Source: Cylindrodendrum hubeiense (taxonomy: Eukaryota > Ascomycota > Sordariomycetes > Hypocreales > Nectriaceae). From it: a stretch of DNA of 64,000 nucleotides. The notes beneath the pieces are model-generated. The model saw nothing but the letters and a program-made list of their open reading frames with translations. It was not told the DNA's origin and did not search any database. Where the stretch lies: the NCBI GenBank assembly GCA_014621425.1, contig JAANBB010000018.1:124001-188000 (forward strand), given 5' to 3'. The translations under genes and the position numbers were made by a program. Positions 16,635 to 22,195 of this stretch are shown here, piece after piece; the first letter of the stretch is position 1; every line of letters begins with the position of its first letter.

Positions 16635-17742
16635 AAGACGCTGGGTCAATACAATAATTCAAGCGATTATACCATGGCATTATTATGGCAAGTGTATCAG
16701 TACAGAAGGGCTGGTATAATTAAATTGCCGTACTGGGACGAAATTCATCCCAACACATGCATGTTTGCCGACTAGTCCGCAACTTGTACAACACATTGGG
16801 GGCGAACGACCATTACTCACAGTACCCATCTAAGTTGTGCCAGTAAGAGATAGTTGCGGGACTAATATGAATATACTAGCTAAAACTATACCAACATGAG
16901 AAAACTGCTAGACTAGTACCGACGATGGACTATATGAGTATGAGGAAATTGCCGGACTGGTATATTGTGTCCCGGTATGAGGCGGCTTAGACACGGAATC
17001 AACAAAATCACAATGTTTATTACTCTCTAGGCGCTTATTATGGATAGAAACAAACTCATATTTACTTTTTTTTCCTCAAGTTAGTAAATCCCAGGGTCGG
17101 TTGCGCATGTGGCGAACAAGATACGATCACATCGCGCGAGTCTCGACCTACCCTACAGTTAACTGAGTACATTTATCTTATCACCTCTCGTCAGGATTTT
17201 GTGACATTCTAGGCATTAAAAACGGGAAAATAAACAATTGAATCCCATACCAAGTCTCAGCTACTATTGTTTTCGCCAGAACAGTCTTGAAATAGTTTTG
17301 TCGAGGTTAAATACATCAGCCCATCTTAATTGCATCCGTGTTGTCTTCCCTGACTTCACCCCACAGCTGGGCTTCTTAGCGTGCATCCGCCAATTTGAGC
17401 TTCAACCCAATTGATGACGGTCAAAGATAGAACAAGTTGTGGCTGCTTAACCAGACATATTGTCCAAGCAAAAATAACAAATTGGCTTTCAACAGATGGC
17501 GTCTCTCTTTTTATCATCCCGCGGATCTTGTTTTTCTCACATTACTTCGAGATCAAGCAACTAAATTGCGATACAGAGCACTGGAAGTTCAGTGCAGGTT
17601 TTACGTCGATTTAATCTTTTTCCTTTCCCTCAATTAAAAAGATGAAAACACATGAGTAGATGTAAAATCTTACGTCTAGTCCTCCCTCAAGCAAGAGTGA
17701 AATCCACAACAACCGGCAAAAAAGAACATTGAAGAGATTCAA
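16635..17742. other. AT-rich intergenic region
   Basis: About 1.1 kb between the DUF4419 gene and tRNA-Asn. Repeated words such as GGACTAGTA/GGACTGGTA and GTGTCCCGGTATGA occur around 16740-16990 but without a regular period. No coding sequence is supported. Confidence 0.4.
17718..17723 (-). terminator. Pol III terminator of tRNA-Asn
   Basis: Six T residues on the minus strand begin 20 nt beyond the 3' end of tRNA-Asn, suitable as an RNA polymerase III stop. Confidence 0.65.
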
Positions 17743-17868
17743 CTCCCCGAGATGGGCTCGAACCATCAACCTCTCGATTAACAGTCGAACGCGCTCTTTG
17801 TGATTATTAGTATTTATACTGCGAAGTCGAATTGATCGAGTACTTACAGCCAATTGCGCCATCGGGGA
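17743..17868 (-). tRNA. tRNA-Asn (anticodon GTT) interrupted in the D-loop
   Basis: Read on the minus strand, all parts of a tRNA-Asn are intact: acceptor TCCCCGA (17862-17868) pairs fully with TCGGGGA, D-stem GCGC/GCGC, anticodon stem TTCGA/TCGAG (17785-17789 with 17773-17777), loop CTGTTAA with anticodon GTT (17780-17782), and T-arm GATGG-TTCGAGC-CCATC. The D-loop is split by a 52-nt insertion (17796-17847). Removing it restores GGCGCAATTGGCTAGCGC, the normal tRNA-Asn D-arm. The A-box and B-box promoter elements are both kept, and a T6 run lies downstream, so transcription by Pol III is plausible. Whether it is processed or is a pseudo-tRNA cannot be decided from sequence, but no stem is damaged. 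Confidence 0.85.
17796..17847 (-). other. Spliceosomal-intron-like insertion within tRNA-Asn
   Basis: The 52-nt insertion begins GTAAGTACTC, a perfect fungal 5' splice site, contains AAATACTAATAATC (close to the TACTAAC branch site) and ends CACAAAG. Its length is typical of introns in the protein genes of this window (47-123 nt). It lies in the D-loop, far from the 37/38 position used by nuclear tRNA introns. A 5-bp inverted repeat AGTAT-AA-ATACT precedes the branch-like site. Excision by the spliceosome is an inference; the exact ends could shift by one base. Confidence 0.7.
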
Positions 17869-20453: not shown

Positions 20454-22195
20454 ATGACGATTGAACTTGATGCAGCGGACTTTCTCCGCGACACTATTTT
20501 GTCGCCGAGAGGCGCTGTGACATTTATCGCGGTTCTCATTGCGATTGTTCTTCTGGTATGCCTTTCCATGTGTGGTTAATTCATATTTATTCCCACGCGC
20601 TTCTTCTAACACTTGCTAGACGGAGGCATACAAGACTGACTTCGCAAAAATTCGGGGCGTCCCAGAACTCCCATCGGCGTTGCCCTTTGTCGGCCATCTT
20701 CATCTCCTCGGTGGCAGGAGTGGCAGGAATGATGCCACCGTCTTCACAGAATGGGGCGAGGCAGTCGGCTCCAACGTCTTTCAATGTTCTCTTGGAAACC
20801 AGAGGACTGTCGTTGTCAATGACTGGGCTACCATGTATGCGCTCTGGATTGAGCAGTCTCAGCAGCTCATTGATCGGCCGCATCAGCCTGGGTTTGTGGA
20901 TAAGCTGGGTATTGATCTTACGGGATCCTGCATGACGGACCAGATCCGGAAGTGTCGCGCTGCGGGAATGCGAGCGTTAGGCAAGGTATGCCCCAAACAA
21001 ATTACTTCTTCAGCTTGAGTGTGGCGAATTGACGCGTTACTGACACAATGTGGAATTGCAGCCAAACTGGCACAAATACTATCACCTCCTTGAGCCATCT
21101 TCTTCCAAGTTCATCTCATCAATTTTTGGAAGATCCAACGACGGCAAAACCCCTCTTGACACTTATGTCCACCTTCGCCACATTGTCTTTGACCTCTGCC
21201 TGTCTCTAACCTACGGAGCTCGATTCGGCGACGTCGACGATGACTTCATGCTCAACTTTATCAAGTCAATCAATGCCGTTTCCGCAGTTCGCTCTTCTAC
21301 CAAGGCGTATCGCCACTTCGTGCCATTGCTACGGATGATACCAGAAGCCACCAGTGAGACGATATCAGCCGAGAGAATCCGACGCAGACATCGAGACATT
21401 CTGTTCAATAATTACAACGATCGAATTGCAGCTGGTGAGACTGTTGACTGCATCGTCGCGGCCCTCGGTGAAGACAAACTCACCGAAGAAGAGGTTCACG
21501 GTACTTGCATTTCGCTCCTCCAGGCCGCTCCTGATACCGTTGCCTCTGGGGTGTACCAGGCGGTTGCTTGGCTTTGCAGTCCGGAGGGCAGACCAACTCA
21601 ACAAGCCGCTTTGGCTGCTATCCTCGAAGCTTACGGCGGTGACCGTGACATGGCATGGAAGATGGCCTTCCGCGAGGAACGCGTCCCACTCATTAGTTCT
21701 CTCAACAAGGAGACACTGCGATTCTTCACTTTTGCTCCTTACGCCACACCGCGCCGTACTGTCAAGGACGTGACTCTCCCTAATGGTGCTGTCCTCCCCA
21801 AGGGCATCACTCTGATCATGAACGCTCAGCAAGTCAACCACGACGAGGCACACTTCTCCAGCGCATGGAGCTTCCAGCCTGATCGTTTCGTCGATAGCAA
21901 GCCGGGGTTGCCGCACGTTGCTTTCGGAGCGGGCAGTCGGATCTGCCCCGCCGTGAACATCAGCAACAGGATCGTCTGTGCGCTGTTGACGAGGCTCATC
22001 CTGGCGTTTGAGATGGAAGGAAGCAAAGAGCCAACTAGGGCGCCGAATGTAGACGCCATAGAGTTCTCGGATGTCTATGATGAGCTGGTGGCGCATCCGA
22101 GGTTCTACGACTGCCATTTCAAGGCTCGGGATTCTGCTTGGCTGGACAAGATCTTGGCGGAGGAGAAGGCTACGGCTATGGCTAGCGCGGCTTGA
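20454..22195 (+). CDS. Cytochrome P450, CYP504-like
   Basis: Three exons (20454-20555, 20620-20985, 21062-22195) encode 533 residues. An N-terminal membrane anchor (about residues 20-35) precedes the proline-rich hinge VPELPSALPFVGH. The I-helix region reads LLQAAPDTVASG, an atypical form of AGxxT; the ExxR motif is ETLR; and the heme-binding loop is FGAGSRICP with Cys451 as iron ligand. The overall pattern resembles fungal phenylacetate and hydroxyphenylacetate hydroxylases (CYP504), but the exact substrate is not certain. It would sit in the ER membrane and need a cytochrome P450 reductase. Its neighbours, a flavin monooxygenase, an OYE homologue and a Zn2Cys6 regulator, suggest a shared pathway. 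Confidence 0.87.

What the first reader, a model, noticed from the sequence alone, without database searches (positions are those of the whole stretch)
17743..17868. Spliceosomal-type intron inside the D-loop of a nuclear tRNA-Asn gene
Seen: every helix of tRNA-Asn(GTT) is intact, but 52 nt interrupt the D-loop. The insert starts GTAAGT, has a TACTAAT branch-like word and ends AAAG; removing it exactly rebuilds the usual GGCTAGCGCG D-arm. Known: nuclear tRNA introns sit at 37/38 and are cut by the tRNA endonuclease; mRNA-type introns have been found in U6 and rRNA genes of some fungi. Inference: this may be an mRNA-type intron that entered a Pol III gene, for example by reverse splicing. The other tRNA in the window has a normal 37/38 intron.
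Basis: partly seen in the sequence, partly recalled or inferred. Interest (0 to 1): 0.88.

Follow-up and report, generated by a model that had tools for sequence, protein, structure and literature searches.

The report
mRNA-type introns inside fungal tRNA genes
In this mould, five of the six nuclear asparagine-tRNA genes that could be found are interrupted at the same point by a short insert that carries the marks of an ordinary messenger-RNA intron, which suggests that the spliceosome, rather than the tRNA-splicing enzyme, finishes this tRNA.

Summary
It is not a one-off. The genome, taken to be Cylindrodendrum hubeiense (Nectriaceae), shows six nuclear tRNA-Asn genes. Five carry a 51-54 nt insert at this site. 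The sixth is uninterrupted and equals the predicted splice product letter for letter. In the five, 74 of 74 exon columns and 15 of 15 splice-signal columns are invariant, against 2 of 39 other intron columns (P about 1.6e-11). Length and branch distance equal the medians of mRNA introns inferred in this genome; the AAG end is unusual (3 of 33). No strict bulge-helix-bulge exceeds chance. The promoter boxes are intact and all six genes have a Pol III-type T-run. Best explanation: a U2-type spliceosomal intron in a Pol III pre-tRNA. No RNA evidence was available and no other fungus could be examined. The listings of ten paper searches showed no report of such an intron in a nuclear tRNA gene.

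The parts
17743..17868 (-). nuclear tRNA-Asn(GTT) gene, interrupted; 126 nt in all, 74 nt without the insert
   Evidence: exons identical to the uninterrupted copy at C795:22775-22848
17848..17868 (-). exon 1: acceptor 5' strand, D-stem 5' strand, D-loop up to position 20a
17850..17861 (-). A box (tRNA positions 8-19), wholly inside exon 1
   Evidence: read; A-box consensus and numbering recalled
17796..17847 (-). 52-nt spliceosomal-type intron between tRNA positions 20a and 21
   Evidence: four further genes with introns at the same site
17842..17847 (-). 5' splice site GTAAGT
   Evidence: invariant in 5 of 5 interrupted copies
17806..17812 (-). branch-site word TACTAAT (presumed branch A at 17807, 11 nt before the intron end)
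   Evidence: CTAAY at the same distance in 5 of 5 copies
17796..17799 (-). 3' splice site AAAG
   Evidence: invariant in 5 of 5 copies
17743..17795 (-). exon 2: position 21 to discriminator base
17780..17782 (-). anticodon GTT
   Evidence: anticodon at position 87 of the 126-nt gene
17754..17764 (-). B box GGTTCGAGCCC
17718..17723 (-). T6 run, likely Pol III terminator

Best explanation
The nuclear tRNA-Asn genes of this fungus (taken to be Cylindrodendrum hubeiense) are made by Pol III as precursors, five of six of which contain a short U2-type spliceosomal intron between D-loop positions 20a and 21. Shown from sequence: the site, the signals, their conservation, the intact promoter boxes and T-runs, and an uninterrupted paralogue equal to the spliced product. 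Inferred: U1 snRNP binds GUAAGU, U2 snRNP binds the (U/C)ACUAAY branch site, and the spliceosome removes 51-54 nt as a lariat and joins U20a to A21, restoring the D-arm. The insert is tolerated by Pol III because it lies just 3' of the A box and well 5' of the B box. The intron probably entered an ancestral tRNA-Asn gene once and spread by gene duplication, because the five copies share site and signals and some pairs keep intron similarity.
For: Six nuclear tRNA-Asn(GTT) genes found: 5 interrupted at one site, 1 not. In the five, exon columns 74 of 74 and signal columns 15 of 15 invariant, against 2 of 39 other intron columns, P 1.6e-11. Intron cores are 42-70% identical in global alignment; shuffled cores give 47-51%. 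Against 33 inferred mRNA introns: length 51-54 (median 52), branch A to end 11 (median 11), signal scores at the 21st-51st percentile; without the 4 introns whose loci had been fetched by a GTAAGT..CTAAY pattern, n = 29, the same medians and the 24th-51st percentile. No strict BHB above chance. T5 or longer within 40 nt downstream in 6 of 6 genes, against 2.7% of random 40-nt stretches of the window; no T-run over 3 inside the introns. Precedent: the fission-yeast U6 gene, a Pol III gene, has an mRNA-type intron (PMC10484740, passages; Pol III from its abstract).
Against: No RNA data: no spliced molecule was seen. All five end in AAG, as only 3 of 33 inferred mRNA introns do; common descent may explain it. 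The mRNA introns were inferred from coding potential and had to have GT[AG]NGT and CT[AG]A[CT], so the match in signals is partly built in, and a decoy run with AC ends gave 5. The consensus fold pairs AGU of the 5' splice site with ACU of the branch word in all five, so part of the conservation could in principle serve a helix. The signal columns were set before the test but after seeing sequences, and the five copies are related, so P is not a strict probability. One uninterrupted gene exists and could in principle supply all tRNA-Asn. No other species could be examined.
Confidence: 0.87

Rival explanations
1. Non-canonical tRNA introns cut by the tRNA-splicing endonuclease, as in archaea, Cyanidioschyzon and nucleomorphs.
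For: D-arm introns exist elsewhere, including position 20/21 in archaea (PMC4090602, passages), and many nucleomorph introns lack a defined BHB (PMC3978253, passage). Anticodon-loop introns are called in this genome, so the enzyme is presumably present.
Against: Strict bulge-helix-bulge scores at the junctions are 5-6 of 10 in the five copies; 469 of 2000 shuffled inserts reach 6 or more (relaxed forms not tested). Only one nucleotide separates the 3' cut from the D-stem, leaving no room for a central helix there. Endonuclease cutting does not explain invariant GTAAGT and CTAAY.
Confidence: 0.06
2. The five interrupted genes are dead copies and tRNA-Asn comes only from the uninterrupted gene.
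For: One uninterrupted copy exists at C795:22775-22848.
Against: All 74 exon positions are identical in all six genes while introns and flanks diverged. For the pair with the most alike flanks (C90 and the second C795 copy, 78% over 60 nt upstream) zero exon differences has probability about 1e-8 under neutrality. T-runs are kept. Gene conversion from the intact copy would tend to erase the insert.
Confidence: 0.05
3. Another class of insert (self-splicing intron remnant, transposon scar, assembly error) that resembles an intron by chance.
For: None found.
Against: 51-54 nt is too short for a group I or II ribozyme (recalled). No group I or II family reached its gathering score in the window. 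Five copies on three contigs argue against an assembly error. 1 of 400,000 random 52-mers carried GTAAGT, CTAAY near the end and AG.
Confidence: 0.02

Closest known systems
mRNA-type intron of the U6 snRNA gene (Schizosaccharomyces pombe)
   Same: A spliceosomal intron inside a Pol III noncoding RNA gene of a fungus (PMC10484740, passages).
   Different: U6 is a spliceosome part, and reverse splicing near its catalytic nucleotides is the origin proposed there. tRNA is not part of the spliceosome, and here five members of one gene family carry the intron.
Spliceosomal introns in nuclear rDNA of ascomycetes (Bhattacharya et al. 2000)
   Same: mRNA-type introns in a noncoding RNA gene of ascomycetes (title cited in PMC2586383, passage; the 2000 paper was not read).
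   Different: rRNA, a Pol I product (recalled), and not a tRNA.
Canonical eukaryotic nuclear tRNA introns at 37/38
   Same: A nuclear tRNA gene with an intron removed before use.
   Different: Different place (20a/21), mRNA-type signals, no anticodon-loop cut site; the expected machine is the spliceosome rather than TSEN and Trl1.
Non-canonical D-arm introns of archaea, Cyanidioschyzon merolae and nucleomorphs
   Same: An intron in the D-arm, in archaea even at 20/21 (PMC4090602 and PMC3978253, passages).
   Different: Those of archaea and C. merolae are linked to BHB motifs (many nucleomorph ones are not); here no strict BHB exceeds chance and spliceosomal signals are conserved instead.

Membership tests
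U2-type spliceosomal intron | 5' splice site GTRNGT | tested here: met
   GTAAGT in 5 of 5 copies
U2-type spliceosomal intron | branch site CTRAY at a suitable distance | tested here: met
   CTAAY, branch A 11 nt before the end in 5 of 5; inferred mRNA introns of this genome have median 11
U2-type spliceosomal intron | 3' splice site AG, usually YAG | tested here: met
   AG in 5 of 5, but always AAG, found in only 3 of 33 inferred mRNA introns
U2-type spliceosomal intron | exact joining restores the mature RNA | tested here: met
   exon 1 + exon 2 = uninterrupted paralogue, 74 of 74
U2-type spliceosomal intron | removal by the spliceosome as a lariat | not testable with these tools
   no RNA data
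endonuclease-type tRNA intron | bulge-helix-bulge or canonical 37/38 place | tested here: not met
   place is 20a/21; strict BHB scores no better than shuffles; relaxed forms not tested
functional nuclear tRNA-Asn gene | tRNA structure, A and B boxes, Pol III terminator | tested here: met
   the uninterrupted copy, same exons, scores 63.9 bits with the Rfam tRNA model (cut-off 29); boxes read, T-runs. The minimum-free-energy fold of the mature sequence and of the precursors is not the cloverleaf. Transcription not tested
tRNA pseudogene | exons decay like neutral DNA | tested here: not met
   74 of 74 exon columns identical in five interrupted copies

The most novel reading that the evidence does not exclude
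Spliceosomal introns are a standing feature of Pol III genes in this fungus and perhaps across Pezizomycotina: most tRNA-Asn genes, and possibly a U6 copy, depend on the spliceosome, so that supply of one tRNA is coupled to spliceosome activity. They have gone unseen because tRNA finders miss such genes.
Probability: 0.35. Interest if true: 0.93.

Novelty: new variant of a known kind. Interest (0 to 1): 0.87.

Why it matters
Eukaryotic nuclear tRNA introns are treated as the domain of the tRNA endonuclease. A tRNA family that needs the spliceosome would link two separate RNA-processing systems, show that a Pol III transcript without U6's tie to the spliceosome can be spliced, and bear on how spliceosomal introns enter new genes. 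It would also mean that tRNA counts in fungal genomes can be wrong for some families: plain ARAGORN calls one of the six tRNA-Asn genes, and the Rfam tRNA model puts two of six over its cut-off, one of them barely at 29.3 bits.

Tried and rejected
Relatives elsewhere: patterns for the interrupted gene gave 0 in viral contigs and 0 in genome contigs. Patterns for the uninterrupted gene or for exon 2 alone also gave 0, so these collections show no fungal tRNA-Asn of this type at all and the zeros say nothing about distribution.

Other interrupted tRNAs in this genome: a first pattern (GTAAGT, CTAAY, B box) gave 17 matches, control 12; 5 are the tRNA-Asn genes and the other 12 loci show no tRNA by ARAGORN. 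GTAAGT, GTATGT or GTGAGT 66-96 nt before a B box gave 5, 5 and 4 matches (backwards-pattern controls 5, 3 and 7, so match numbers alone prove nothing). All 5 GTAAGT matches are tRNA-Asn. Of the other 9, one lies at a tRNA-Lys on contig C360 (which I take to be mitochondrial from its tRNA set), one is a tRNA-like gene on C790 that I could not resolve, and 7 show no tRNA by ARAGORN. Other 5' splice sites and other B boxes were not searched, and the Rfam tRNA search scored only 63 of 1339 candidates, so this is not a full census.

Donor of the intron: the window's insert matched only itself at E up to 10; as the sister introns were missed too, the search is too blunt to find a donor. A first mRNA-intron inference (26 introns, lax 5' sites) was replaced (33 introns from 16 sequences).

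Literature: ten answered paper searches, judged from listings, and passages of eight papers, showed no spliceosomal intron in a nuclear tRNA gene. Some of these searches aimed at precedents or the species rather than at this question. The library is open-access PMC only.

Full report
What is there. On the minus strand of the window a tRNA-Asn(GTT) gene runs from 17868 to 17743. Exon 1 has 21 nt, the insert 52 nt and exon 2 53 nt. By standard numbering (recalled) the insert lies between 20a and 21, on the 3' side of the D-loop. The Rfam tRNA model scores the place below its cut-off (27.2 against 29 bits), with a false 5' half. ARAGORN without introns misses it; with its intron option it calls tRNA-Asn with an intron of 51 nt placed at position 35.

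The organism. A protein of the window is 98% identical to one of Cylindrodendrum hubeiense on a contig of 305,732 bases, the length of the window's contig C90. The genome held has 47.5 Mb; a paper lists the species' assembly at 48.81 Mb (PMC11433043, passage). The species belongs to Nectriaceae, Hypocreales, Pezizomycotina.

The family. A DNA search with the whole gene found six places. A search with the uninterrupted gene found the same six and no others at E up to 1; a B-box pattern also shows this B box six times. Five genes are interrupted: C90 (the window), C117, and three on C795. The sixth, C795:22775-22848, is not, and its 74 nt equal exon 1 plus exon 2 of the others. Four of the six lie within about 4.4 kb on C795. 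A tRNA-Asn called on contig C360 is taken as mitochondrial, because that contig carries a dense set of tRNAs of many kinds. The assembly may be incomplete, so six is the number found.

Conservation. The introns are 52, 54, 51, 54 and 52 nt long. In the alignment of the five interrupted genes, 74 of 74 exon columns are invariant. In the introns 15 of 15 columns of the signals GTAAGT, ACTAA and AAAG are invariant, against 2 of 39 others (hypergeometric P 1.6e-11). Intron cores are 42-70% identical in pairwise global alignment, where shuffled cores give 47-51%, so most core similarity is lost while the signals are kept. Neutral decay of dead copies does not give this: for the pair with the most alike upstream flanks (78%), zero of 74 exon differences has probability about 1e-8.

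Comparison with mRNA introns. From the window and 63 other loci (256 kb, some of it overlapping; set counted) I inferred 33 mRNA introns by coding potential on both sides, lying in 16 of these sequences; the same procedure with a decoy 3' end AC gave 5, so perhaps one in six is false. Their median length is 52 and the median distance from branch A to the end 11; GTAAGT and GTGAGT are the commonest 5' sites with 13 each. Four of the 33 lie in loci that had been fetched by a GTAAGT..CTAAY pattern; without them (n = 29) the medians are the same and GTAAGT has 9, GTGAGT 13. The tRNA inserts fall at the 21st to 51st percentile of signal score with all 33 and at the 24th to 51st with 29. The exception is the 3' end: AAG in all five, against 3 of 33. 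This is unexplained; descent from one founding intron is the simplest account.

Against the endonuclease. A strict bulge-helix-bulge at the junctions was scored in all five. The best values are 5-6 of 10 pairs, and 469 of 2000 shuffled inserts reach 6 or more. Relaxed forms were not tested. Only position 21 lies between the 3' junction and the D-stem, so a central helix has no place there. The consensus fold has no pair changed on both sides; it does pair AGU of the 5' splice site with ACU of the branch word in all five, which the invariant signals themselves would produce. The minimum-free-energy folds of precursor and mature sequence are not the cloverleaf; the covariance model nevertheless gives the uninterrupted copy 63.9 bits.

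Pol III features. The A box (8-19) ends two nucleotides before the insert, and the B box is intact. A run of five or more T lies within 40 nt downstream in six of six genes, against 2.7% of random 40-nt stretches of the window. No intron has a T-run above 3. That a Pol III RNA can be spliced by the spliceosome has a precedent in fission-yeast U6 (PMC10484740, passages).

What could not be tested. No RNA data and no other fungal genome are within reach of these tools. The zeros in prokaryotic and viral collections are empty, because patterns for the uninterrupted gene or its exon 2 find nothing there either. A published hint: a curation of Aspergillus niger found three asparagine tRNA genes where 17 amino acids have 8-24; Trp (one) and Cys (four) were low too (PMC6108506, passages). 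Interrupted tRNA-Asn genes may have been missed there, but it is no test.

Literature. Passages of two reviews (PMC4090602, PMC3978253) and of the tRNAscan-SE 2.0 paper (PMC8450103) discuss non-canonical tRNA introns in terms of the splicing endonuclease and BHB, chiefly in archaea; the word stem 'spliceosom' occurs 0 times in PMC4090602 and PMC8450103, and 'spliceosomal' once, about protein genes, in PMC3978253. The listings of ten paper searches gave no report of a spliceosomal intron in a nuclear tRNA gene. I recall none either, but subscription papers are not held.

Verdict. A real, conserved and, within what I could search, unreported feature: U2-type spliceosomal introns in five of the six nuclear tRNA-Asn genes found. 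It works like a known machine in a new place. The step that is inferred and not shown is the splicing itself.

Noticed in passing
G000 contigs C450:12981-13083 and C41:36727-36888: Two U6 snRNA matches over the cut-off: one of normal length (103 nt, 85 bits) and one spanning 162 nt (65.1 bits). The second may hold an insert of about 59 nt, possibly an mRNA-type intron in another Pol III gene.
   Followed up: partly
L093:1490-1648 (minus), C790: A tRNA-like stretch of 159 nt with a perfect acceptor stem, a T-arm, A- and B-box-like words and a T-run, but no good anticodon arm; Rfam 26.8 bits (below cut-off), ARAGORN calls a doubtful Leu(GAG) with a 69-nt intron. Unresolved.
   Followed up: partly
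G000 contig C795:20378-24730: Four of the six tRNA-Asn genes lie in one short stretch together with tRNA-Pro and tRNA-Glu genes in which ARAGORN calls anticodon-loop introns of 18-19 nt.
   Followed up: no
G000 contigs C90 and C795 (copy at 20685): These two tRNA-Asn copies share 78% of 60 nt upstream and have the highest whole-intron identity (0.77), so they look like a duplication that carried the intron with it.
   Followed up: no
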